NCBI GenBank assembly: GCA_021927905.1
Contig: BLLK01000038.1
Coordinates: forward strand, 434,001-498,000
DNA from: Chaetoceros tenuissimus
Lineage: Eukaryota; Bacillariophyta; Thalassiosirophyceae; Chaetocerotales; Chaetocerotaceae
Direction of reading: 5' to 3'
DNA: 64,000 nucleotides
The number at the start of each line of letters is the position of its first letter. Within the stretch, counting starts at the first letter, position 1. The translations under genes and the position numbers were made by a program. Below, in pieces: positions 32,661 to 60,077 of the stretch. The notes under the pieces are model-generated. The model worked only from the letters and a program-made list of their open reading frames with translations, was not told where the DNA came from and did not search any database.

Positions 32661-32778
32661 AGGAACGACCATACAATCATGAGAACACCGATACCCGTCT
32701 GCTCATCGAAGTTAAGCATGATCTGGTCGAGGTAGTACTACGGTGGGGGACCACGTTGGAATTCTCGATGTTGTTCTT
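32661..32778 (+). rRNA. 5S rRNA gene, copy 1
   Basis: 118 nt starting AGGAACGACCATACAATCAT and ending GATGTTGTTCTT. The 5' AGGAAC pairs with the 3' GTTCTT (helix I). Conserved 5S blocks are present: ACCATAC, GAACACC, CGAAGTTAAGC (A-box region), TAGTACTACGGTGGGGGACC (loop E and C-box). T-runs for Pol III termination follow (CCTTTTGCTTTTT). Ends are set by helix I and may be off by 1-2 nt. Confidence 0.93.
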
Positions 32779-33052
32779 AAAATTTCCTTTTGCTTTTTCC
32801 ACAAGCAACCTACGATGATGTTTCTTTATGTATTTTATAGTAGATACTATTAGATTCAACTCACATTGATCGGCACTGATCAATATGCTTTTCATATATA
32901 TATTTGCGCATGTTTCGACTGACACATATTTTTCCACTTTGAAAAGGGGTGAAAACAGACCCATCAACTAAGGAAGAGCGGCTAACATCGAAACAGACAT
33001 TGGAAACAGAAACAATCAACAAAGAAGTAAAAATGAGCAAGTTCACAATAGG

Positions 33053-33086
33053 GTAGGAAAGAGAGCTGAAGCTTCATCTTTCCTAC
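33053..33086. repeat. Conserved hairpin in the 5S spacer (1)
   Basis: GTAGGAAAGA at 33053-33062 pairs perfectly with TCTTTCCTAC at 33077-33086; the loop itself contains the palindrome TGAAGCTTCA. The stem is kept in all five complete spacers; only one unit has a loop change. Confidence 0.7.
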
Positions 33087-33235
33087 GAACTTCTCTCTGT
33101 AACATTTGGTAGACTTGTCTCGACGCATATTCATATTTTCGTACGTATCGTGTATGAAATTTTTGCATACTACGTAGATAATGCCGATAATTTGAAGCAT
33201 ACCTTCTACTCGTAGGTACCATCATGTAGACTAAA

Positions 33236-33285
33236 GTAGCATCATACTCATAATATGTATGATGGATAAGTGAGAAACATGCTAC
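33236..33285. repeat. Conserved hairpin in the 5S spacer (2)
   Basis: Nested inverted repeats: GTAGCAT/ATGCTAC at the outside (33236-33242, 33279-33285) and CATCATAC/GTATGATG inside (33240-33247, 33257-33264). Present in all complete spacers. Confidence 0.65.
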
Positions 33286-33493
33286 CTTACTTTCTATCCT
33301 TGAAAAATAACTCACTTTGGGCAAATGCATACCGTGGTACATACTACTATAATTACCCCCACTATAAATTATTCCAGTTATTTGCTTTTAGCTTGGTATT
33401 CAGTTTCACAGGAGCGAGCAATACAAAGCAGAGCTTGCATTGACGTACGGAGGATTACTTCGAAAAGAAGGGGAATAAATTCGAAAATCACTA

Positions 33494-33544
33494 GGGATAA
33501 TCCTTACCGGTAAAAACTCTCACTTTCTAAACCATCTATTGAAG
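33494..33544 (+). pseudogene. Relic of the zinc-finger gene inside the 5S spacer
   Basis: 51 bp of spacer match zinc-finger exon 4 (31106-31156) at 42 of 51 positions by hand count, including an exact AAACCATCTATTGAAG. In the gene this encodes the ...GNYSHIPNHLLK part of the module. The relic has stops around it and repeats in each later full spacer, about 34687, 35876, 37065 and 38258. Confidence 0.65.
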
Positions 33545-33853
33545 CTGATTTGACTTATGCAGCTATCATACATTACGGTAGGATGGATGGGTCGTTTTGA
33601 CGGTTTTCGATCGTAACTTTGACATCGTAGCTGGATTGGGCTTGTTGATAAGCATAAATGTAAAGATAATAGTGACTATTGAGATTGATTGTTGTAATGT
33701 ATGTATGTATGTATTTATGGAATTGCTTGTTTTATGAAGTAAGAGTGATAGTGGTAGGTGCGAAAGGGTGTCATTGTTTGTGAAAAGAGTAGGATCGTAA
33801 GTTGTATGATAATAGTGATAGTCTTCATAGGAGCAAGTAAAGGCGTTGATAGC

Positions 33854-33971
33854 AGGAACGACCATACAATCATGAGAACACCGATACCCGTCTGCTCATC
33901 GAAGTTAAGCATGATCTGGTCGAGGTAGTACTACGGTGGGGGACCACGTTGGAATTCTCGATGTTGTTCTT
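33854..33971 (+). rRNA. 5S rRNA gene, copy 2
   Basis: Same 118-nt sequence and internal promoter boxes as copy 1, 1193 bp downstream of it. Confidence 0.93.
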
Positions 33972-35038
33972 AAAATTTCCTTTTGCTTTTTCCACAAGCA
34001 ACCTACGATGATATTTCTTTATGTATTTTATAGTAGATACTATTAGATTCAACTCACATTGATCGGCACTGATCAATATGCTTTTCATATATATATTTGC
34101 GCATGTTTCGACTGACACATATTTTTCCACTTTGAAAAGGGGTGAAAACAGACCCATCAACTAAGGAAGAGCGGCTAACATCGAAACAGACATTGGAAAC
34201 AGAAACAATCAACAAAGAAGTAAAAATGAGCAAGTTCACAATAGGGTAGGAAAGAGAGCTGAAGCTTCATCTTTCCTACGAACTTCTCTCTGTAACATTT
34301 GGTAGACTTGTCTCGACGCATATTCATATTTTCGTACGTATCGTGTATGAAATTTTTGCATACTACGTAGATAATGCCGATAATTTGAAGCATACCTTCT
34401 ACTCGTAGGTACCATCATGTAGACTAAAGTAGCATCATACTCATAATATGTATGATGGATAAGTGAGAAACATGCTACCTTACTTTCTATCCTTGAAAAA
34501 TAACTCACTTTAGGCAAATGCATACCGTACATACTACTATAATTACCCCCACTATAAATTATTCCAGTTATTTGCTTTTAGCTTGGTATTCAGTTTCACA
34601 GGAGCGAGCAATACAAAGCAGAGCTTGCATTGACGTACGGAGGATTACTTCGAAAAGAAGGGGAATAAATTCGAAAATCACTAGGGATAATCCTTACCGG
34701 TAAAAACTCTCACTTTCTAAACCATCTATTGAAGCTGATTTGACTTATGCAGCTATCATACATTACGGTAGGATGGATGGGTTGGTACGAGGTTTTCGAT
34801 AGTAACTTTGACATCGTAGCTGGATTGGGCTTGTTGATAAGCATAAATGTAAAGATAATGGTGACTATTGAGATTGATTGTTGTAATGTATGTATGTATT
34901 TATGGAATTGCTTGTTTTATGAAGTAAGAGTGATAGTGGTAGGTGCGATAGGTTGTCATTGTTTGTGAAAAGAGTAGGATCGTAAGTTGTATGATAATAG
35001 TGATAGTCTTCATAGGAGCAAGTAAAGGCGTTGATAGC

Positions 35039-35156
35039 AGGAACGACCATACAATCATGAGAACACCGATACCCGTCTGCTCATCGAAGTTAAGCATGAT
35101 CTGGTCGAGGTAGTACTACGGTGGGGGACCACGTTGGAATTCTCGATGTTGTTCTT
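35039..35156 (+). rRNA. 5S rRNA gene, copy 3
   Basis: Same 118-nt sequence as copy 1; it lies in a unit of the second spacer variant, 1185 bp after copy 2. Confidence 0.93.
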
Positions 35157-36227
35157 AAAATTTCCTTTTGCTTTTTCCACAAGCAACCTACGATGATGTT
35201 TCTTTATGTATTTTATAGTAGATACTATTAGATTCAACTCACATTGATCGGCACTGATCAATATGCTTTTTCATATATATATTTGCGCATGTTTCGACTG
35301 ACACATATTTTTCCACTTTGAAAAGGGGTGAAAACAGACCCATCAACTAAGGAAGAGCGGCTAACATCGAAACAGACATTGGAAACAGAAACAATCAACA
35401 AAGAAGTAAAAATGAGCAAGTTCACAATAGGGTAGGAAAGAGAGCTGAAGCTTCATCTTTCCTACGAACTTCTCTCTGTAACATTTGGTAGACTTGTCTC
35501 GACGCATATTCATATTTTCGTACGTATCGTGTATGAAATTTTTGCATACTACGTAGATAATGCCGATAATTTGAAGCATACCTTCTACTCGTAGGTACCA
35601 TCATGTAGACTAAAGTAGCATCATACTCATAATATGTATGATGGATAAGTGAGAAACATGCTACCTTACTTTCTATCCTTGAAAAATAACTCACTTTGGG
35701 CAAATGCATACCGTGGTACATACTACTATAATTACCCCCACTATAAATTATTCCAGTTATTTGCTTTTAGCTTGGTATTCAGTTTCACAGGAGCGAGCAA
35801 TACAAAGCAGAGCTTGCATTGACGTACGGAGGATTACTTCGAAAAGAAGGGGAATAAATTCGAAAATCACTAGGGATAATCCTTACCGGTAAAAACTCTC
35901 ACTTTCTAAACCATCTATTGAAGCTGATTTGACTTATGCAGCTATCATACATTACGGTAGGATGGATGGGTTGGTACGAGGTTTTCGATAGTAACTTTGA
36001 CATCGTAGCTGGATTGGGCTTGTTGATAAGCATAAATGTAAAGATAATGGTGACTATTGAGATTGATTGTTGTAATGTATGTATGTATTTATGGAATTGC
36101 TTGTTTTATGAAGTAAGAGTGATAGTGGTAGGTGCGATAGGTTGTCATTGTTTGTGAAAAGAGTAGGATCGTAAGTTGTATGATAATAGTGATAGTCTTC
36201 ATAGGAGCAAGTAAAGGCGTTGATAGC

Positions 36228-36345
36228 AGGAACGACCATACAATCATGAGAACACCGATACCCGTCTGCTCATCGAAGTTAAGCATGATCTGGTCGAGGT
36301 AGTACTACGGTGGGGGACCACGTTGGAATTCTCGATGTTGTTCTT
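36228..36345 (+). rRNA. 5S rRNA gene, copy 4
   Basis: Same 118-nt sequence as copy 1, 1189 bp after copy 3; its unit is nearly identical to that of copy 3. Confidence 0.93.
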
Positions 36346-37421
36346 AAAATTTCCTTTTGCTTTTTCCACAAGCAACCTACGATGATGTTTCTTTATGTAT
36401 TTTATAGTAGATACTATTAGATTCAACTCACATTGATCGGCACTGATCAATATGCTTTTTCATATATATATTTGCGCATGTTTCGACTGACACATATTTT
36501 TCCACTTTGAAAAGGGGTGAAAACAGACCCATCAACTAAGGAAGAGCGGCTAACATCGAAACAGACATTGGAAACAGAAACAATCAACAAAGAAGTAAAA
36601 ATGAGCAAGTTCACAATAGGGTAGGAAAGAGAGCTGGAGCTTCATCTTTCCTACGAACTTCTCTCTGTAACATTTGGTAGACTTGTCTCGACGCATATTC
36701 ATATTTTCGTACGTATCGTGTATGAAATTTTTGCATACTACGTAGATAATGCCGATAATTTGAAGCATACCTTCTACTCGTAGGTACCATCATGTAGACT
36801 AAAGTAGCATCATACTCATAATATGTATGATGGATAAGTGAGAAACATGCTACCTTACTTTCTATCCTTGAAAAATAACTCACTTTGGGCAAATGCATAC
36901 CGTGGTACATACTACTATAATTACCCCCACTATAAATTATTCCAGTTATTTGCTTTTAGCTTGGTATTCAGTTTCACAGGAGCGAGCAATACAAAGCAGA
37001 GCTTGCATTGACGTACGGAGGATTACTTCGAAAAGAAGGGGAATAAATTCGAAAATCACTAGGGATAATCCTTACCGGTAAAAACTCTCACTTTCTAAAC
37101 CATCTATTGAAGCTGATTTGACTTATGCAGCTATCATACATTACGGTAGGATGGATGGGTCGTTTTGACGGTTTTCGATCGTAACTTTGACATCGTAGCT
37201 GGATTGGGCTTGTTGATAAGCATAAATGTAAAGATAATAGTGACTATTGAGATTGATTGTTGTAATGTATGTATGTATGTATTTATGGAATTGCTTGTTT
37301 TATGAAGTAAGAGTGATAGTGGTAGGTGCGAAAGGGTGTCATTGTTTGTGAAAAGAGTAGGATCGTAAGTTGTATGATAATAGTGATAGTCTTCATAGGA
37401 GCAAGTAAAGGCGTTGATAGC

Positions 37422-37539
37422 AGGAACGACCATACAATCATGAGAACACCGATACCCGTCTGCTCATCGAAGTTAAGCATGATCTGGTCGAGGTAGTACT
37501 ACGGTGGGGGACCACGTTGGAATTCTCGATGTTGTTCTT
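37422..37539 (+). rRNA. 5S rRNA gene, copy 5
   Basis: Same 118-nt sequence as copy 1, 1194 bp after copy 4; its unit resembles that of copy 2. Confidence 0.93.
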
Positions 37540-38712
37540 AAAATTTCCTTTTGCTTTTTCCACAAGCAACCTACGATGATATTTCTTTATGTATTTTATA
37601 GTAGATACTATTAGATTCAACTCACATTGATCGGCACTGATCAATATGCTTTTCATATATATATTTGCGCATGTTTCGACTGACACATATTTTTCCACTT
37701 TGAAAAGGGGTGAAAACAGACCCATCAACTAAGGAAGAGCGGCTAACATCGAAACAGACATTGGAAACAGAAACAATCAACAAAGAAGTAAAAATGAGCA
37801 AGTTCACAATAGGGTAGGAAAGAGAGCTGAAGCTTCATCTTTCCTACGAACTTCTCTCTGTAACATTTGGTAGACTTGTCTCGACGCATATTCATATTTT
37901 CGTACGTATCGTGTATGAAATTTTTGCATACTACGTAGATAATGCCGATAATTTGAAGCATACCTTCTACTCGTAGGTACCATCATGTAGACTAAAGTAG
38001 CATCATACTCATAATATGTATGATGGATAAGTGAGAAACATGCTACCTTACTTTCTATCCTTGAAAAATAACTCACTTTGGGCAAATGCATACCGTGGTA
38101 CATACTACTATAATTACCCCCACTATAAATTATTCCAGTTATTTGCTTTTAGCTTGGTATTCAGTTTCACAGGAGCGAGCAATACAAAGCAGAGCTTGCA
38201 TTGACGTACGGAGGATTACTTCGAAAAGAAGGGGAATAAATTCGAAAATCACTAGGGATAATCCTTACCGGTAAAAACTCTCACTTTCTAAACCATCTAT
38301 TGAAGCTGATTTGACTTATGCAGCTATCATACATTACGGTAGGATGGATGGGTCGTTTTGACGGTTTTCGATCGTAACTTTGACATCGTAGCTGGATTGG
38401 GCTTGTTGATAAGCATAAATGTAAAGATAATAGTGACTATTGAGATTGATTGTTGTAATGTATGTATGTATGTATTTATGGAATTGCTTGTTTTATGAAG
38501 TAAGAGTGATAGTGGTAGGTGCGAAAGGGTGTCATTGTTTGTGAAAAGAGTAGGATCGTAAGTTGTATGATAATAGTGATAGTCTTCATAGGAGCAAGTA
38601 AAGGCGTTGATAGCAGGAACGACCATACAATCATGAGAACACCGATACCCGTCTGCTCATCGAAGTTAAGCATGATCTGGTCGAGGTAGTACTACGGTGG
38701 GGGACCACGTTG

Positions 38713-39718
38713 TAACCCCCCGTGCATGCAACAATCCATGCAACTCACTAACAACCACCGCGTTTCAGACTTAGAGAAATTTTAATGCAAGTCGAAAAAT
38801 TTTCAATACACTTTTACATCTCAAAAACATTTTTACATATTCGAAAAAATTTATAATACAACAATTAACAATATAATATTCTACTGTTACTATTTTTTAC
38901 ATCAAAATTGCATATAAAGCGCCATAGATACCGAACGGAGTCAAATCATTGGTTTCGACGTTACTGATGCGTAAATGAATGAAATAGGAGCCTGTGATGC
39001 TCGTATCAAGCAAAAATAAGCCCAGAGGAAGCTACAACCATCATAGCATGGATATAGAACAATCCTGAACCAGCGAAAACGAAGATATCGAGTCCATCTC
39101 ACATTTACATCACACGAGCGAGCATGTGTCAATTATGATATGTCGTTTCTTTGCTGTCGATGAAGGCTTGTTCAGAGGCTATCACAGTCACCGGCTACAG
39201 CCTCTCCTAAGGAATAGAAAGAATGAAAAGATTTTGGAGTTGATCATAGTGCTGGTGAAACCAGCACACATCTATTCAAGCATAAGCCGTATTAGATGCA
39301 ATCAGATTCATGACATATGATACATGTTCAGCTTGATTGAGGCAATCCGCAGAGATCTACAAGGAAACACTTCGTATCCACACTCACATACAACCAATAT
39401 CTAACTATAAATGTTTTGTTTGCAGCAGAATGTGTATCATAATTCAAATATGTAGCATCGAAGATGCTGAAAAACTGCTCTTTTTTACTGAGAATCAGGC
39501 TGTGAGTGGAGATGCATGTTGCAAACTTGGATTTTCACGCACTGACACCTAATAAATTAGTTGTTGTAAATTCAACAGTTTGTGCAACAAATACAACAGG
39601 TCTGACCCCCAAGGGTACCCCTGTTTTAGAGAGGGGATTCGGTCCCCCTGGTATAAAAGTACGTACGAAACGTTGCATTTGGAAAACTTCTGCAACATTT
39701 GTTGTATTTACGGGATTA
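38713..39718. mobile_element. Non-autonomous ~1-kb transposon in a 5S gene, copy A
   Basis: 1006-bp element beginning TAACCCCCCGTGCATGCAAC and ending ...TGTATTTACGGGATTA. The inverse complement of the end (TAATCCCGTAAATACAACAA) matches the start imperfectly over ~30 bp, so these are terminal inverted repeats. It has no coding frame over ~105 codons and no transposase. Internal hairpins include GTGCTGG-TGAA-CCAGCAC. The 7-bp target repeat and location in a multicopy RNA gene recall the Dada group of DNA transposons (6-7-bp repeats, RNA-gene targets), but that is inference. Confidence 0.75.
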
Positions 39719-39725
39719 CACGTTG

Positions 39726-40731
39726 TAACCCCCCGTGCATGCAACAATCCATGCAACTCACTAACAACCACCGCGTTTCAGACTTAGAGAAATTTTAATG
39801 CAAGTCGAAAAATTTTCAATACACTTTTACATCTCAAAAACATTTTTACATATTCGAAAAAATTTATAATACAACAATTAACAATATAATATTCTACTGT
39901 TACTATTTTTTACATCAAAATTGCATATAAAGCGCCATAGATACCGAACGGAGTCAAATCATTGGTTTCGACGTTACTGATGCGTAAATGAATGAAATAG
40001 GAGCCTGTGATGCTCGTATCAAGCAAAAATAAGCCCAGAGGAAGCTACAACCATCATAGCATGGATATAGAACAATCCTGAACCAGCGAAAACGAAGATA
40101 TCGAGTCCATCTCACATTTACATCACACGAGCGAGCATGTGTCAATTATGATATGTCGTTTCTTTGCTGTCGATGAAGGCTTGTTCAGAGGCTATCACAG
40201 TCACCGGCTACAGCCTCTCCTAAGGAATAGAAAGAATGAAAAGATTTTGGAGTTGATCATAGTGCTGGTGAAACCAGCACACATCTATTCAAGCATAAGC
40301 CGTATTAGATGCAATCAGATTCATGACATATGATACATGTTCAGCTTGATTGAGGCAATCCGCAGAGATCTACAAGGAAACACTTCGTATCCACACTCAC
40401 ATACAACCAATATCTAACTATAAATGTTTTGTTTGCAGCAGAATGTGTATCATAATTCAAATATGTAGCATCGAAGATGCTGAAAAACTGCTCTTTTTTA
40501 CTGAGAATCAGGCTGTGAGTGGAGATGCATGTTGCAAACTTGGATTTTCACGCACTGACACCTAATAAATTAGTTGTTGTAAATTCAACAGTTTGTGCAA
40601 CAAATACAACAGGTCTGACCCCCAAGGGTACCCCTGTTTTAGAGAGGGGATTCGGTCCCCCTGGTATAAAAGTACGTACGAAACGTTGCATTTGGAAAAC
40701 TTCTGCAACATTTGTTGTATTTACGGGATTA
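39726..40731. mobile_element. Non-autonomous ~1-kb transposon in a 5S gene, copy B
   Basis: Second copy in the same orientation, exactly 1013 bp from copy A (1006-bp body plus 7-bp repeat). All internal reading frames are the same as in copy A, so the two are identical or nearly so and the doubling is recent. Confidence 0.75.
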
Positions 40732-41122
40732 CACGTTGGAATTCTCGATGTTGTTCTTAAAATTTCCTTTTGCTTTTTCCACAAGCAACCTACGATGATG
40801 TTTCTTTATGTATTTTATAGTAGATACTATTATTAATAGATTCAACTCACATTGATCGGCACTGATCAATATGCTTTTCATATATATATTTGCGCATGTT
40901 TCGACTGACACATATTTTTCCACTTTGAAAAGGGGTGAAAACAGACCCATCAACTAAGGAAGTGCTTGCTCACTTTTTTCGCTTACCTTTTTGATATCAT
41001 TTTGGAATTCTACGATAGTACGATAGTTTCTATTTGTTTTACTTTTATTTGTGATGCATTTTTGTCTTTCTTCTTTTGATTTTAGAAGCTGAAATTATTT
41101 TTGGAAAGTGTTTTAGTTAGTC

Positions 41123-44100
41123 ATGTTTTTAGGGAGAACTGCAACAAAACAGTCTAATATACGAAATAGTAATGTTAATAATGAGACAACCAACAATGAT
41201 CAGGCACCAATGAAAAAGTTGTCAACATCATCTAAACCAACAAGCATTGATTTACAAGGAACTGAAATTCATTTCCCTTTCAAGCCATATGATTGTCAGC
41301 TCGAATATATGGGCAAAGTTATCGGAGCTCTCAATAGATCCGAAAATGCTTTACTGGAGTCTCCAACAGGAACTGGTAAAACACTCTGTTTACTATGCTC
41401 AACTCTTGCATGGCAAGAGCAGCAAAAGCGATTATCAAATGAATCATCCAAAATAGCTGCAGATACAATAAGCGATGGAGCAAGTCAGCCAGTTCACAAT
41501 AGTATACCGACTATTATTTATGCATCTCGAACACATAGTCAATTGTCACAGGTTGTAAAAGAAATGAGATTTACACGATATAGACCAAAGCATGCAGTAT
41601 TAGGATCTCGTGAACAAATGTGTGTACATCCAAAAGTCAAAACTGCTAAAGCTACATCTAGTGATATAGATCATAATTGTACGAGACTGAATAAGGAGAG
41701 GAAATGTAGATTTCGTAATAATTTAGATGGATTCATGGTGAATGGTCCAGAAGAAAATGGGCTACAACCTGTACTTGATATTGAAGAGCTTGTAGATTTA
41801 GGAAAGAAAAGAAAAGTCTGTCCATTTTATTTGACAAGGAATCAAATTGCATCAGCTGAAATTTTGTTTCTGCCATATAATTACTTGTTTTCAAAGGACG
41901 CAAGATCTTCGACACTTGCTGAAGTAAATTGGGCAAACTCAATCATCGTTTTCGATGAAGCTCACAATCTTGAAAGTTTTGGTGAGTAATTATATCTCAT
42001 ATTGTCTATCTATTCTACTCATTTTTACAATACTTATTTGTTTTTCAATTTAGCGGCTGAGAGCGCATCATTTGACCTAAGCAGTGTCGATATTGCTGGA
42101 TGTATGAATGAGGTTCAAAGAGCCATTGGATACCTTCAAGCAATGCCAACAGATGGAGGTGAAGTCAAAATGGAAAATCTAATCAGACTCAAGTCAATAT
42201 TTTTACAATTTGAACAATATCTTGATAATGGTGTTCCACAAAATGGAGGAAGTTTTTCGGGGGAAATGATTTTTGACGTATTCATGAAGGCAGCAAATAT
42301 AAACCATGCTAACCATTCTGTGTTTCTGAAATTCATAAAACAAGTTTGTGATATGGTGATGGAAATGCGCGGTGGTACCGCTTCAGCAAATGCCTCTTCA
42401 GGAACTCCAAAGTTAGATCATTTCGTCTCTTGTGTAAAGAGAATATTTGGGGGGAATACAGAAGGCCAGAATATTGCAAGAGCAAGAGCATATCGAGTTC
42501 ACATCTCACCAAAAGTCGCAAATAAAGGTGGATTTGGAGGCAACAAAAACGATGGAAATAAAGGACGAGTCCTTTCATTCTGGTGCTTTGCCCCAAGTCT
42601 AGCGATGCATGAATTGCAAGCTCTCAATGTTCGATCTATTCTTGTTACGTCCGGAACTTTGTCCCCACTTCCTTCGTATTCGCTTGAACTTGGTATCAAC
42701 TTTCCGCATACATTAGAAAACTCCCATATCATCACAAAAGAACAAATCAATGTGAAAGTTATTGGAAAGGGTGTTAGTGGAAAAGCTTTGAGTTCAAGCT
42801 ACAATAGAAGAGACAATGTTGAATATATCATGGAACTTGGAAACACAATTATAAGTTTAGCGCGCATCGTCCCTGATGGCATGTTGATATTCTTCCCTAG
42901 TTACAGTGTTATGGAAACCTGTATCGAAAAATGGGGAGGACCCCTTTCATCAAGTTCTAGAAACAAGTCAAATGGTAAACAGTCTTTTTTCCAAACAAAA
43001 CAAAAAAGATCGACTGGAAGCAACAATAGGTATTCCTTTCCAAGCAGCGCTCTTCCTAGTAATTCTTCATCGACAAATCCTTGGCAGAGATTACTCGCAA
43101 TTAAGTCTATTGTCCTCGAACCTAGAACTACAGCTCAACTTAAAGATGCAATTGACGAGTTTCAGAAGTTCCTGACTATGCCAAAAAGTAAGGGTTGCAT
43201 TTTGATGGGAGTATGTAGGGTGAGTTCATTGACTCTTCTTGGTAAAAACATGATTTTGAATCACTAACATTTTACGTTTATTACAGGGGAAAATATCAGA
43301 AGGAATAGATTTTAAAGATGAAGCTTGTAGATGTGTCGTCATCACCGGTATTCCATTTGCTCCATATTTAGATCCAAAAGTCAAATTGAAAAGGGAATAC
43401 CTGGACAGCGTGAAAACAGCTTTGGCAATGAAATCAGATGGAGAAGGAGGTTTCGGCGCAGACTCTCCATCTACTCAGTCACTGTCAGGTGCAGATTGGT
43501 ACTCTCAACAAGCTCATAGATCAGTCAATCAGGCAGTTGGAAGAGTCATTCGTCACCAAAATGATTATGGTGCAATAGTTTTTCTTGACTCACGATACTC
43601 AGAGCCTCGCAACCAAGCAGGAGTTTCCAAGTGGATAAGACCATCGTTTGAAGAAGACAAAGGATTTGGAAGCGCCATTAGGTCACTAGCGTTGTTTTTC
43701 AAGCAATCAAAAATTAACGACGAGAAACATAAAAGGCTGACTGCAGCAAAGGGACCTCTTGTGATCCAATACGAAGATGAAACCCAGAGTAATCAAAGGT
43801 CTTCCTTAGACCCCGCTGTAAAGAATGTTGCATATGTCAATACCAATACTATCTCGAAGACACAAGGCACAGAAGGAGACGCATTACAAGGTTATATTCC
43901 ACCAAATATGATACAGAGGGGATCGTCTCTAGAACAAAGTGAAGAGCTCAAAACATTGAACACAAACGCTATTCTAAATCAAGCGAATGATACCAAACAA
44001 TCAGGAAAAGGCTTGTCTTCTTTATATTCCAATACATCCAGATCTAGAGTTGGCAAAGTGGATGGTGGCAGAAGTAATTCAATTTCATCTACAATTCAGT

Positions 44101-45239
44101 CAGCATGGTCGAATTCAACTTTGAAATCGACAAGTCGAAGCAAACCCAATACGTCCACCGAAAGAAACGATAAACAAAATCAAGCTCAAAATGTCTTCAA
44201 AACTGCCACATCTATTCTCAGCAAAGAGGACTTGCAACAGATGAGGAAGCTACTCGTACTGATCAAAAAATCATGCGACGACAATGATGACAAATCTTAT
44301 ACATCCAATACACAGTCTTTAATAAGTACCGTTCTTTCCTACAACAGTACGGAATCAGGGGTAGAAGGCGAACCCTACAAGTTACTCATTGCTCTCTTGG
44401 ACCTACTACCGGAACAGAAAAGAATAGAATTTGAAAAGAAGGTGACTCTTCTAGCTTTAAAACAATCCCCACTCTTTGGTATAGTGAAGGAAAGTATAAG
44501 TTCTAAAGCAGATCGTCATATCTTGGCAAACTTGATCCCTGAATTGATGATGAACAGAGCTCAAAGTTCAAATGTACAAAATATTAAAAGGGTGATGGAC
44601 ACCTTTTTCAAAAACAATACAGTCAACTTTGAGTCACATTTGAGTGCTCTTCTACCAAAGCGTGCAAGAAATGTTGTTCGAGTTATTATTGAAGAAGCAC
44701 AGACTAAGGAGCAAATACAACGTATGAAGGAGAAGGATAAGTGTAACCAGCAAGACTTGACAACAGCAAAAATAATGAAAACGTCATCAAGTACTACTGA
44801 TCATGAAAGCAATCCAAGAGAGAATACTGGCGAGAAAGATGAAAAGTTGGATCAAAGTCAGAAGACTATCCAGTCTCAAGCGTTGAAACCTACTCACATG
44901 ATTTCCCAAAGACCGTCTAAGCGCGCAAGAATGATTGCAAACCGAACTGAAACAGTCAAGAGGAAAGACCCATTAGAGAACTTTGTCAAACAGGCAGGCG
45001 AAGAAGTTTTTAGGAAGGATAAGAATAGAACAAACGACTTCGAGTCGAATGCTCCCAAAGGGACCGAGTGCAACATCTGCCAGAAAACTTGCAATCAGTT
45101 CTACATAGCAGAATGCAATCATTTTTCTTGTAAAGAATGCTGGACAAATTGGTTGGCTCGTAACAACAATTGTCCAACATGTAGGCAGCCCGCTTGCATG
45201 GAAACTTTGTCAAAAGTCGTATTCGAGAAAAACAAATAA
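41123..45239 (+). CDS. RTEL1-like Fe-S DNA helicase with C-terminal RING finger
   Basis: Three exons, 41123-41981, 42054-43219 and 43287-45239, with introns of 72 and 67 bp in correct phase; 1325 residues. RTEL1 is an XPD-family 5'-3' helicase that unwinds D-loops and telomeric T-loops and limits recombination. Motifs: Q-like FPFKPYDCQLEYM; Walker A LLESPTGTGKTLCLL; IIYASRTHSQLSQV; Fe-S Cys in REQMC, DHNC, ERKC and KVCPFYLTR; DEAH box IVFDEAHNLES; motif V GVCRGKISEGIDFKDEACRC; motif VI QAVGRVIRHQNDYGAIVFLD. After a long linker with a helical, harmonin-like block (FKNNTVNFESHLSALL), a C3HC4 RING ends the protein (CNICQKTC, ECNHFSCKECW, NCPTCRQP). The layout matches full-length RTEL1 rather than FANCJ or CHL1. 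Confidence 0.9.
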
Positions 45240-50110: not shown

Positions 50111-50576
50111 ACTTTCACTTGATATTCTTTAGTCTTGATTTTTGTCTCTATCTTTTTATATTTGGATCTATAGTGTATAGTCATATACGTAGCCACTATG
50201 GCATAAGGATCACCTTATTCTTGTGGCTCTTGTACACCAATATAGAGTATTCCCAACAATAATCTTCATCTGAATATGTTGTCTTTCCTGATGTTGAAAG
50301 AAGGTCAATGAGTGGCTGTCACTTCGTCACATCATTATTTCTCAGTCCCATCTTGCTCCACGGGTCATTTCTCAAAGCCTTCCCATAACCACATTCTGTC
50401 CTAAAATGACTCTTTCGGATAATAATTTCAGCTCGTGATTGGTGCTGTTCTCGGAAAACAGTGAACAAAACAGCACAAAATGCATTTTGGGAAGGGATTT
50501 ATGCGTTTCTAATGTTCGAATACTCAGTATTTATTCCTGCAGCCTCACAGTTTCGAAACGAGTTCAAAGAAGAGAG
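50111..50576. other. Divergent promoter region
   Basis: 466 bp between the YcfD-like gene and a glycosyltransferase-like gene that point apart. A plus-strand frame continues upstream of 50577 but without an ATG; I see no other feature. Confidence 0.4.
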
Positions 50577-52244
50577 ATGAAAACGACGCTAAAAAAGAGC
50601 AAGAGGCTAGTCATTATTGTCGCGTCAACAGCGTTAGTGTATGCTTTGCTTGGTGGTAAAACTAATGGTTTGCTTACTCGTCAACTGGAGGAACAACAAG
50701 CAGCACCAAAACCAATTCTAGGAGGAATTCCTTTAAATATGCAGGGAGCTCCAGGGGTCATAAATCCTGCTGCTCCACAGGGTCCTATGGGTACTGCTGC
50801 CGCCACTGGAGGAGTCATGACTCAAAGTCAAGTTCCAAATGCACAAAGTTCTGTAGGTGCAGTACCTGGTGTTACATCTGCTTCTCAAAGCGCTCAATTT
50901 GTTTCAAATCCTGCACAAAATATGGCTCGATACCCAGCTAATCCTGCAACAATTCCAGCAAATGTTAATGGTGCCATGGCAGCAGCAATTGGAACACCAA
51001 TCTATGCCACAAAGGGAGTACTTCCTGGTGCTGCTGGTGTTTCAAGCTCCCAAAATCCTGAACAGAATACAGTTGAAGCAGCAAAGCCTTCTATGATAGG
51101 AGAAAATGCTCAAAGTGCAATGGCAACTGCAATTGAAACTCCTATGGAAAAGCCTGTAATGACCGGGCAAATGAATGAGGTTATGCCTCCAAATCAAGAG
51201 AATAATGAGGTTATGCCTCCAAATCAAGAGAATAATGAGGTTATGCCTCCAAATCTAGAGAATAATGAGGTTATGCCTCCAAATCCAGAGAATAATGAAG
51301 CTATGCCAAATAATGTAGAGGCTGCCGGTGTCGAAATGCATGAGAAAGCTTTGGAAGATACTCAACCAGCAATGGAACAGCCCGAAGTACAACAGGCTAT
51401 GGAAGTTGTCGAACCTGAATTAGAAGTGACAGATATTCCTGTTGAAGTAATCAATGACGAAAGACCAATCATGCATACTTTCTATCATCCAGTTGATGCT
51501 GAGGGCTGTTGTGGTATGTCAGCAGAAGCACATCTGAATCTTTTACGTGCTTGGGAAGATTCTTGGCAAGCAGCAGGGTGGAGAACGAGAGTTCTTAGAG
51601 GAGAAGATGCACACAAACATCCAGACTTTGACCGTCTGAACAACAAATTAATCGAATTGGAAGTAGATCCTTATAATCGTCGCTGCTTTTGGAGATGGCT
51701 TGCAATGGCTTCAGATGAAATCAATGGTGGTTGGATGAGTGACTATGACGTCTTCCCTCTTACTCTTACCGCTGAAAAGGGGCTAGAATTGCAAGATGAG
51801 GGCTTCCAAACTTGGGCTGCGCATGTTCCTGCTTTGATCCATGCAGATAAGGAAAGCTGGAATAAAATCATCAACATGATGATTGACGAGATTCCAACAG
51901 ATTTTCCTCCAGGAAGTGCCTATATCACAGATATGAATATGCTTCAGTTTCTTCATTTCAGTAAAAAGAAGAAAGAAATGAATGTCACAACCTGGAAAAT
52001 GTTCGTGAACCCTGGGTTCCCCTACAAACCAGAAAGGGATGGTACACTGGCTGAGATTTGGTGTGAAAAGGCACAGAAAGCACTAGCAGCTCATCTCAGT
52101 CATCATGACGTTATTGAAGCTATGGAAAAATTTCACAATTACCCATATGTAGAGGGGCTTGAACCGTCTCAACACACAGAAAAGAGAGGACCAGCAGCGA
52201 GACGAATGATGGCAGACTATCATAATATATGCCTACAACAGTAA
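50577..52244 (+). CDS. Glycosyltransferase-like type II membrane protein (paralogue 1)
   Basis: The ATG at 50577 gives 555 residues and is chosen because the hydrophobic anchor follows at once (KRLVIIVASTALVYALLGG) and no ATG lies upstream. A ~250-residue stem rich in Ala, Pro, Asn, Met and Gln follows, with four copies of a ten-residue repeat (EVMPPNQENN). The C-terminal ~280 residues are a conserved domain shared with the gene at 58299-59598: IMHTFYHPV, GCCGMSAEAHLNLLRAWEDS, GWRTRVL, RRCFWRWLAMASDEINGGWM, SDYDVFP, LAAHLSHHDVIEA. 'GGW(M)xDYD' resembles the nucleotide-sugar DxD site of GT-A enzymes. I infer a Golgi glycosyltransferase; the sugar is unknown. No intron, unlike its paralogue. 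Confidence 0.7.
   Translation: MKTTLKKSKRLVIIVASTALVYALLGGKTNGLLTRQLEEQQAAPKPILGGIPLNMQGAPGVINPAAPQGPMGTAAATGGVMTQSQVPNAQSSVGAVPGVTSASQSAQFVSNPAQNMARYPANPATIPANVNGAMAAAIGTPIYATKGVLPGAAGVSSSQNPEQNTVEAAKPSMIGENAQSAMATAIETPMEKPVMTGQMNEVMPPNQENNEVMPPNQENNEVMPPNLENNEVMPPNPENNEAMPNNVEAAGVEMHEKALEDTQPAMEQPEVQQAMEVVEPELEVTDIPVEVINDERPIMHTFYHPVDAEGCCGMSAEAHLNLLRAWEDSWQAAGWRTRVLRGEDAHKHPDFDRLNNKLIELEVDPYNRRCFWRWLAMASDEINGGWMSDYDVFPLTLTAEKGLELQDEGFQTWAAHVPALIHADKESWNKIINMMIDEIPTDFPPGSAYITDMNMLQFLHFSKKKKEMNVTTWKMFVNPGFPYKPERDGTLAEIWCEKAQKALAAHLSHHDVIEAMEKFHNYPYVEGLEPSQHTEKRGPAARRMMADYHNICLQQ
51181..51300. repeat. 30-bp coding minisatellite, four copies
   Basis: Four in-frame 30-bp units (51181, 51211, 51241, 51271), each TTATGCCTCCAAATCAAGAG plus AATAATGAGG with single-base changes. 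They encode the ten-residue stem repeat and are likely to vary in number between strains. Confidence 0.95.
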
Positions 52245-58298: not shown

Positions 58299-59598
58299 TT
58301 ATACAAATGATGGTGAGGCTCCCTGTGCCGCTGCTAGCGCCCTCTGTTCTGCAGCTTGTTTGCGACACATTTCCATGTCCGCTACCATTCTTCTTGCAGA
58401 TGGACCTCTTTTTTCGACGCTCATCGTTATTTCTTCTGTGTCAGGTACGTTAGGAAACCCGCCAACATCAGGGTACGTTTCTAGAACATTAAATGCCTCA
58501 ATAACGTCGTGATGGCTAAGATGAGCTGCCAAATGTAACCTTGCTTCATCACAATCAATTTCGGGCTGACCACCTTCAACTGCTGCAGGACTATAAGGGA
58601 ATCCTTTTGCTACATTGGTACCCCAATGAGTAATACCCATTTTAATTGGCCCTGCGAAAATGTAGAGATACTGTAACATGTGCATATCTGTGACCAAAAC
58701 TTCTGCAGGCAAATCTCCTTGTGGAATAGACCTAATCATCAAATCAGTAATATGATCCCAGCTCTCTCTGCTTGCATGGATTAGGTCAGGGATGTGCTGG
58801 TCAAACGATTTGAATCCAGGGTCTTCTTGGAACCTCATTCCTTGATTAACGTGGAGAGAAAGAGGAATTGTATCATAATCACTCTGTTGAGAATGAAGAA
58901 GTTGAGTGTACAATTATTCCTTTTGCTATTTGCTTTATTTCAATGGTTTATATTTTGAGTGCACTTACCATCCATCCTCCATTGATTTCTGGTGTTGACA
59001 TTGCAAGCCATCTCCAAAAGCAGCGACGATTATATGGAGTTACATTAGCAGCTGCGAGCTTTTTATCAAGTACCTCAAAATCTGGGTGCTTTCTTGCGTC
59101 GGCTTCTGTGAGAATTCTAGTCTGCCAGCCATTTTGCTCCCATGTATCTTTCCATGCACGAAGAAGGTTTGCATGTCCCTCTTCAGACATACCACAGCAA
59201 CCACCTACTACAGGCTCATAAAAAGTATTCATGATTGGAGGTCCATTCGGATCTATCTCCTGAGTCACGGGGTATTTCGACTCAGCTGGTGCAGGTTCAG
59301 CTGGTGCAACTGCTTTAGATTGAGCTAGGCTTCTAATCTTATCGTAGCTCCCGATTTTGTTCAATGGTTCTTCTTCTGATTGGTTGAGTACAGAGTCGGT
59401 TTCTGCTAGCATAGACTTTACTGCATCTTCACCAAATCTTGACTTCATTCGTTCTAGAGCCAATAATGCATCATCTGCTGAGTCTAGGTTACGAGAAATA
59501 GATTCATTTTCAGGTTTATTTTCATGAAAGACATTGTAGAATAGAGCCGCCAAGGCAAGAAAAGCCATTGCCTTCTTCTTGTTTGAAGTCATCGCCAT
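58299..59598 (-). CDS. Glycosyltransferase-like type II membrane protein (paralogue 2)
   Basis: Two exons, 59598-58969 and 58883-58299, phase-0 intron of 85 bp; 404 residues. A short basic N-terminus and anchor (KKKAMAFLALAALFYNVF) precede a ~110-residue stem without the repeats of its paralogue. The catalytic-like domain matches the gene at 50577: IMNTFYEPVVGGCCGMSEEG, LLRAWKDTWEQNGWQTRIL, RRCFWRWLAMSTPEINGGWM, then SDYDTIP after the intron, and LAAHLSHHDVIEAF. The intron falls exactly between GGWM and SDYD. The DYD is the likely metal/nucleotide-sugar site. Golgi glycosyltransferase by inference; sugar and acceptor unknown. Confidence 0.7.
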
Positions 59599-60077
59599 GA
59601 TATATATATTTATGAAGCTTGAATCTGTGTTGAATGTTTGCTGCTTCTACGCTTCAAATCAATGTGTCTCTATGATCTACTAGCTGTGGTGCTGAGCTAA
59701 CAACAGTTCTTCCTTCATCATTTGAAATGCCTTTTTTTCGGCTCACGCATGGACAAAGTTATTTCCGAAAATGCCAATGACTTTTTGTTTCGCCGAGATT
59801 GTGGCTAAATTAGAAAACAATATCTTTGTTTTACACTAATTTGTCAGTGTATTTTCCATTTCAAGGTAAAAACAATAAAATTACTGCAATGGTGTTCCCC
59901 GCTACAATGTCGCTCTGTTTGCACCAAGAGCATTGATTATGGCGGTTTCCATCTGTGCCTAGTGTAGGTACTCGTAAGAACCAAACATTATTATTAAAAA
60001 TACATACCAAAACTGATTGATGATAATAACCTTGAAAAGATGAAAGTAATAATCTCAATCTATAGGGTATTAGAGGT
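59599..60077. other. Intergenic, 0.48 kb
   Basis: Upstream of paralogue 2 (leftward) and 3' side of the esterase gene. A small TA run precedes the ATG. Nothing else seen. Confidence 0.4.

What the first reader, a model, noticed from the sequence alone, without database searches (positions are those of the whole stretch)
38706..40738. Doubled transposon targeted into a 5S rRNA gene, with three identical 7-bp direct repeats
Two apparently identical 1006-bp elements lie head-to-tail inside 5S copy 6, in the pattern CACGTTG-element-CACGTTG-element-CACGTTG. The intact 5S gene has the 7-mer once. Imperfect terminal inverted repeats begin TAAYCCC. A 7-bp target repeat plus an RNA-gene target fits the Dada transposons (known for U6, U1 and tRNA sites); a 5S-directed, non-autonomous member in a diatom would be new. 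The doubling suggests that the element re-inserted into its own target repeat. The alternative reading of TG...CA ends with 3-bp repeats would point to LTR-LTR-like junctions.
Basis: partly seen in the sequence, partly recalled or inferred. Interest (0 to 1): 0.82.

Follow-up and report, generated by a model that had tools for sequence, protein, structure and literature searches.

The report
Doubled mobile element in 5S genes
A small mobile DNA element has landed, at two places as a head-to-tail pair, at exactly the same spot inside 5S ribosomal RNA genes of what is probably a diatom; a sister copy carries a decayed gene of the Cre/lambda-integrase kind, so it most likely moved like a phage that integrates at one fixed site and not by the cut-and-paste transposase first proposed.

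Summary
In detail: two identical 1006-bp elements with CACGTTG before, between and after them interrupt a 5S rRNA gene after nt 98. In the 41-Mb assembly the element ends were found five times, all in 5S genes at CACGTTG in one orientation: this pair, a pair in a second 5S array (its copies differ at 6 sites, so that doubling is no assembly artefact), and a single 1591-bp relative. 3 of 28 5S genes found are occupied. The relative shares only the ends (67 and 214 bp) and encodes a 359-aa member of a protein family with tyrosine-recombinase fold and, in some members, Crypton's GCR1_C domain. This points to a Crypton-like site-specific element with a 7-bp crossover core between inverted arms, not to Dada. 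The doubling is best read as repeated integration into the regenerated core. The encoded protein lacks three of six active-site residues and no intact member was found in this genome, so the mobilising enzyme is inferred. Fungal Starships also target 5S; this is a small new variant.

The parts
38615..38712 (+). 5' part (nt 1-98) of the interrupted 5S rRNA gene, copy 6 of the array
   Evidence: Rfam RF00001 60.6 bits versus 98.1 for copies 1-5; core at nt 92-98
40732..40759 (+). 3' part of the same 5S gene (core plus last 21 nt)
   Evidence: joined to the 5' part it equals the intact 5S copies
38706..38712 (+). direct repeat / presumed crossover core CACGTTG, left
38713..39718 (+). element copy 1, 1006 bp; longest stop-to-stop frame 93 aa, and that one crosses the junction
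   Evidence: identical to copy 2; ORFs
39719..39725 (+). direct repeat / core CACGTTG at the element-element junction
39726..40731 (+). element copy 2, 1006 bp
40732..40738 (+). direct repeat / core CACGTTG, right
38713..38779 (+). left end (67 bp) shared with the ORF-bearing C16 element, 92.5% identity; same in copy 2 at 39726-39792
39505..39718 (+). right end (214 bp) shared with the C16 element, 93.9% identity; same in copy 2 at 40518-40731; holds TATAAAA at 39652-39658
38780..39504 (+). interior (725 bp) without detected similarity to the C16 element or elsewhere in the genome outside the four 1006-bp copies; same in copy 2 at 39793-40517
39699..39747 (+). junction site: inverted arms (right end TTGTTGTATTTACGGGATTA, left end TAACCCCCCGTGCATGCAACAA) around the 7-bp core; would be the recombination site of a circular form
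   Evidence: function inferred
32661..37540 (+). five intact 5S genes of the array (32661, 33854, 35039, 36228, 37422), each an empty target with one CACGTTG

Best explanation
The 1006-bp elements are non-autonomous, site-specific mobile elements of a Crypton-like tyrosine-recombinase (YR) lineage. Shown: identical target, 7-bp direct repeat, inverted arms next to it, one orientation, shared ends with a longer sister that carries a YR-family ORF. Inferred: a YR acting in trans excises the element as a circle whose joined ends (arm-CACGTTG-arm) recombine with CACGTTG (nt 92-98) of a 5S gene, leaving one core on each side. Each flanking core is a new target, so a second circle can enter beside the first and give core-element-core-element-core. 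The repeats are then the crossover segment, not a staggered-cut duplication. The sister's protein keeps three of six active-site residues, so it is probably not the active enzyme; that enzyme is lost from this genome, lies in another strain, or was missed.
Confidence: 0.8

Rival explanations
1. Dada-type DDE transposon: a staggered cut in the 5S gene duplicates 7 bp; non-autonomous copies move in trans and re-insert in their own target repeat. The YR-like ORF on C16 would be unrelated cargo.
For: 6-7-bp repeat, small RNA gene target, one orientation (Dada-U1) and tandem copies with a shared repeat are all described for Dada; Dada-5S exists in fish (PMC8869645 and PMC3706591, passages), and a Dada is listed from the brown alga Ectocarpus (PMC3706591, passage).
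Against: The only coding relative found carries a YR-family ORF, not a DDE transposase. Dada-U6 and Dada-U1 have no terminal inverted repeats, only sub-terminal ones; here inverted arms start at the first base. A Dada transposase was not searched for directly in this genome, as I had no model of it.
Confidence: 0.1
2. YR-type element, but mobilised by a different YR of this genome: a multicopy ORF of up to 401 aa with GTHSLR / GRW / Y motifs, DIRS- or Ngaro-like by eye.
For: Nine places match PF00589 weakly, best E 0.0025, none over the cut-off; the one copy fetched has an intact 401-aa frame with these motifs.
Against: No similarity to the C16 family's P0009 beyond the motif (best BLASTP E 0.96); no sign that it uses these ends.
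Confidence: 0.06
3. The doubling in the window is an assembly duplication or a plain local tandem duplication, not a second integration.
For: Window copies are identical over 1006 bp and no reads were available.
Against: A second locus has the same exact doubling with copies that differ at 6 sites, and a chance exchange would have to use just the 7-bp repeat at two loci.
Confidence: 0.07

Closest known systems
CryptonF (YR + GCR1_C DNA transposons of fungi and oomycetes; PMC3212892)
   Same: Protein family with YR fold and, in some relatives, C-terminal GCR1_C; short terminal direct repeats; low copy number; non-autonomous derivatives that keep the ends are described for CryptonI (and non-autonomous families for CryptonA).
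   Different: 7-bp instead of 6-bp repeat, clear inverted arms, strict 5S target, head-to-tail pairs, probably diatom host; the coding copy here lacks GCR1_C and three active-site residues.
CryptonS (oomycetes and the diatom Phaeodactylum; PMC3212892)
   Same: Stramenopile YR transposon with short direct repeats.
   Different: CryptonS lacks GCR1_C, has 5-6-bp repeats and mostly TATGG termini; some relatives here have GCR1_C and the termini are TAAYCCC.
Fungal Starships of the Enterprise family / Osiris (PMC12153272)
   Same: YR element inserted in and fragmenting 5S genes; 5S targeting goes with direct repeats over 6 bp, and most Starships have inverted ends.
   Different: Starships are 20-700 kb with a captain YR (DUF3435) and cargo; these are 1.0-1.6 kb; PF11917 gave no match here, but its control also rang nowhere.
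Dada, incl. Dada-5S of fish (PMC3706591, PMC8869645)
   Same: Target class, 6-7-bp repeats, tandem copies sharing one repeat, internally deleted derivatives.
   Different: DDE transposase with CCCC zinc finger; no terminal inverted repeats in Dada-U6 and Dada-U1.
Bacterial integrative elements at tRNA genes (recalled, no call)
   Same: Tandem accretion at a regenerated core site by a YR.
   Different: Nuclear eukaryotic genome, 5S gene disrupted and not rebuilt, no transfer genes.

Membership tests
Crypton (YR DNA transposon) | Encodes a tyrosine recombinase | tested here: inconclusive
   Sister element encodes a member of a YR-fold family but with K, H and W of the active site replaced; window copies encode nothing long
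Crypton (YR DNA transposon) | Short terminal direct repeats as recombination substrate | tested here: met
   CACGTTG on both sides of every copy, 8 of 8 repeats; that they are the substrate is inferred
Crypton (YR DNA transposon) | No terminal inverted repeats (as first described; PMC3212892 passage) | tested here: not met
   Imperfect inverted arms at the very ends. So described as Crypton-like, not filed as a Crypton
CryptonF | GCR1_C domain C-terminal to the YR | tested here: not met
   Not found in the C16 ORF, one match below cut-off in the genome; present above cut-off in relatives P0004, P0014, P0020, P0029
Crypton (YR DNA transposon) | Circular intermediate | not testable with these tools
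   No reads; only inferred from core-element-core-element-core
Dada | DDE transposase with CCCC zinc finger | tested here: not met
   The one coding relative between the same ends has a YR-family ORF of 359 aa and is only 1591 bp long; a Dada transposase elsewhere in the genome was not searched for
Dada | 6-7-bp target repeat in a multicopy small RNA gene | tested here: met
   7 bp in 5S at 3 of 3 loci
Dada | No terminal but sub-terminal inverted repeats (Dada-U6 and Dada-U1) | tested here: not met
   Inverted arms begin at base 1
Starship | DUF3435 captain and large cargo | tested here: inconclusive
   Elements are 1006 and 1591 bp, far below Starship size; PF11917 no match, but the control was silent too

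The most novel reading that the evidence does not exclude
A eukaryotic nuclear counterpart of bacterial integrative islands: minimal YR elements that leave and enter 5S genes precisely at a 7-bp core, stack head to tail by integrating into their own regenerated core, and fire an outward TATA promoter 67 bp from the right end across the joined ends of a circle or tandem, where it would read into the recombinase ORF of the next copy. 5S arrays would then serve as reversible docking sites in diatoms.
Probability: 0.25. Interest if true: 0.75.

Novelty: new variant of a known kind. Interest (0 to 1): 0.57.

Why it matters
Target-specific movement into multicopy RNA genes has been described for non-LTR retrotransposons, Dada and fungal Starships. 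A small Crypton-like element doing the same in a probable diatom would show that recombinase-type elements reached the 5S site in a second setting, and would give a naturally site-specific recombinase and attachment-site pair at a multicopy locus. Two head-to-tail pairs, one with copies that look like separate arrivals, make the open question of how Cryptons integrate (circle plus core crossover) directly testable.

Tried and rejected
Dada membership: dropped as the first choice after the C16 relative proved to encode a YR-family ORF. LTR or solo-LTR reading with TG..CA ends and CGT repeats: the TG and CA lie within the 7-bp core; no internal region is seen in any of the 5 copies. RNA gene inside the element: Rfam at E up to 1 on 38600-40860 found only the 5S. 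Relatives in viral contigs: none with P0005; 57 pattern matches and none confirmed with alignment A2; 0 for the 5S-element junction pattern. Relatives in prokaryote genomes: 13 pattern matches, none confirmed; the junction pattern gave 8 bacterial or archaeal MAG contigs, while I estimate about 15 by chance in 257 Gb; not examined further. Structure of the C16 ORF itself: too poor to use, not searched. Profile of the family against PDB sequences: no credible match. 5S arms resemble the element arms (4 and 4 of 7), but 1.6% of window positions do as well: suggestive only. GCAAC/GTTGC words lie in the conserved ends in 6 of 6 cases (window element) and 7 of 8 (C16); they might be accessory binding sites, not shown. 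Protein searches scored only the candidates sharing most words (7,999; 7,997), so more relatives may exist. Papers: full-text searches in the open-access library listed no paper whose title or shown abstract reports a 5S-targeting Crypton or such a diatom element; subscription journals, preprints and Repbase were not searched. Seen as passages: PMC3212892 (plus outline with abstract and its section 8), PMC3706591, PMC8869645, PMC12153272, PMC12134995, PMC12220804; the rest only as listings.

Full report
What is there. Window 38706-40738 reads CACGTTG, a 1006-bp element, CACGTTG, the identical 1006-bp element, CACGTTG. The surrounding sequence is the sixth 5S rRNA gene of an array; copies 1-5 are intact at 98.1 bits, the sixth falls to 60.6 bits. 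The 7-mer is nt 92-98 of the gene, which by recalled knowledge of the Xenopus 5S gene is the end of the internal promoter, so the promoter part would stay upstream of the element while the 3' end of the RNA is cut off.

Whole-genome picture. The window lies at G000:C27:434001-498000 in an unnamed 41.0-Mb assembly of 68 contigs. A DNA search with the element and pattern searches with each end, up to 3 mismatches, agree on five copies: 5 exact left ends and no others, and 5 exact right ends plus 8 hits with 3 mismatches, against 15 for the reversed control pattern, so those 8 are taken as chance. The five are the window pair, a pair at C27:59521-61539 in a second 5S array, and one 1591-bp element at C16:2727306-2728896 on the minus strand in a third array. 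Each sits at CACGTTG of a 5S gene, in the orientation of the gene. Two searches each found 28 5S sites (the tool calls such counts lower bounds); 25 are intact and 3 occupied. All 28 read GGTGGGGGACCACGTTG exactly although one mismatch was allowed, so no altered empty site was seen.

Age and independence. Within each array the 5S units compared are 98-100% alike, except the 227 bp downstream of the window's occupied gene, 96.5-96.9% (three whole units of the second array and two of the C16 array were compared). Between the window array and the second array on C27 the aligned pieces are 81-91% alike. The second pair's copies differ at only 4 and 2 of 1006 sites from the window copy. They therefore entered, or were copied over, after the arrays had diverged. 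The two copies of the second pair differ from each other at 6 sites, so that pair is not an assembly echo. One of the six, position 978, has A in copy B1 and in the C16 element but C in B2 and both window copies. The simplest reading is that B1 and B2 arrived separately, but one site can also be explained by conversion or back mutation.

The C16 protein aligns to this family at 199.6 bits and keeps the first and second arginine and the tyrosine, but the lysine, histidine and tryptophan positions are changed, and it lacks the N-terminal part and GCR1_C. It is therefore probably not an active recombinase. The ORF itself, P0002, P0005 and P0014 find no other member in the genome; GCR1_C has one match, below its cut-off (E 0.19). 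Genes split by introns could have been missed. A different, multicopy YR-like ORF of up to 401 aa exists but is not detectably related.

How it most likely works. Tyrosine recombinases exchange strands at a 6-8-bp segment between two inverted binding arms (PMC3212892, passage). The element-element junction here has this form...TTTACGGGATTA-CACGTTG-TAACCCCCCG..., with 6 of 7 paired positions next to the core. A circle carrying that site would recombine with the 5S core, and either flanking core could accept a second circle. That explains exact doubling at two loci, the 7-bp repeat, the fixed orientation and the shared ends in one model. What is shown is the anatomy and the family of the sister's protein; circle, enzyme and order of events are inferred. 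A speculative detail: TATAAAA lies exactly 67 bp from the right end in both element types and would read across the junction into the next copy.

Comparison. Dada matches the target habit but not the coding content, nor the ends as described for Dada-U6 and Dada-U1. CryptonF matches the protein architecture of some relatives, but Cryptons as first described have no inverted ends. Starships of the Osiris type insert in 5S, 5S targeting goes with repeats over 6 bp, and 18 of 20 high-confidence Starships have inverted ends, yet they are giant and use a DUF3435 captain, a YR very distantly related to Crypton's (PMC12134995, passages). I therefore call it a Crypton-like, 5S-specific YR element with non-autonomous derivatives: it works like an integrating phage or Starship, and is related to GCR1_C-bearing Crypton-like proteins, but is not filed as a Crypton sensu stricto. 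No such element turned up in the paper searches named under Tried and rejected; Repbase was not available.

Noticed in passing
G000:C54:962600-964500 (L096:526-1731) and eight further places on C17, C21, C44, C57: Multicopy ORF of up to 401 aa with weak Phage_integrase similarity and GTHSLR...GRW...Y motifs in the copy read: another YR family of this genome, possibly DIRS/Ngaro-like (by eye).
   Followed up: partly
window 39652-39658 and 40665-40671: TATAAAA exactly 67 bp from the right end in both the 1006-bp and the 1591-bp element type, pointing outward across the junction.
   Followed up: partly
window 38713-38779 and 39505-39718: GCAAC/GTTGC words occur only in the conserved ends of the window element (6 of 6) and nearly only there in the C16 element (7 of 8).
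   Followed up: partly
window 50439-52244 (+) and 58299-59646 (-): Two ORF regions share a GGCCGMS..H.NLLRAW motif and look like a paralogous, glycosyltransferase-like pair (by eye from the ORF list).
   Followed up: no
window 41117-45239 (+): Open frames that look like a RAD3/FANCJ-like helicase with a RING-like C-terminal stretch begin about 360 bp after the interrupted 5S gene (by eye from the ORF list).
   Followed up: no
G000:C27:51760-61539 and 466661-474738: In both C27 arrays the occupied 5S gene is the last one listed; in the C16 array it is the third of four.
   Followed up: no
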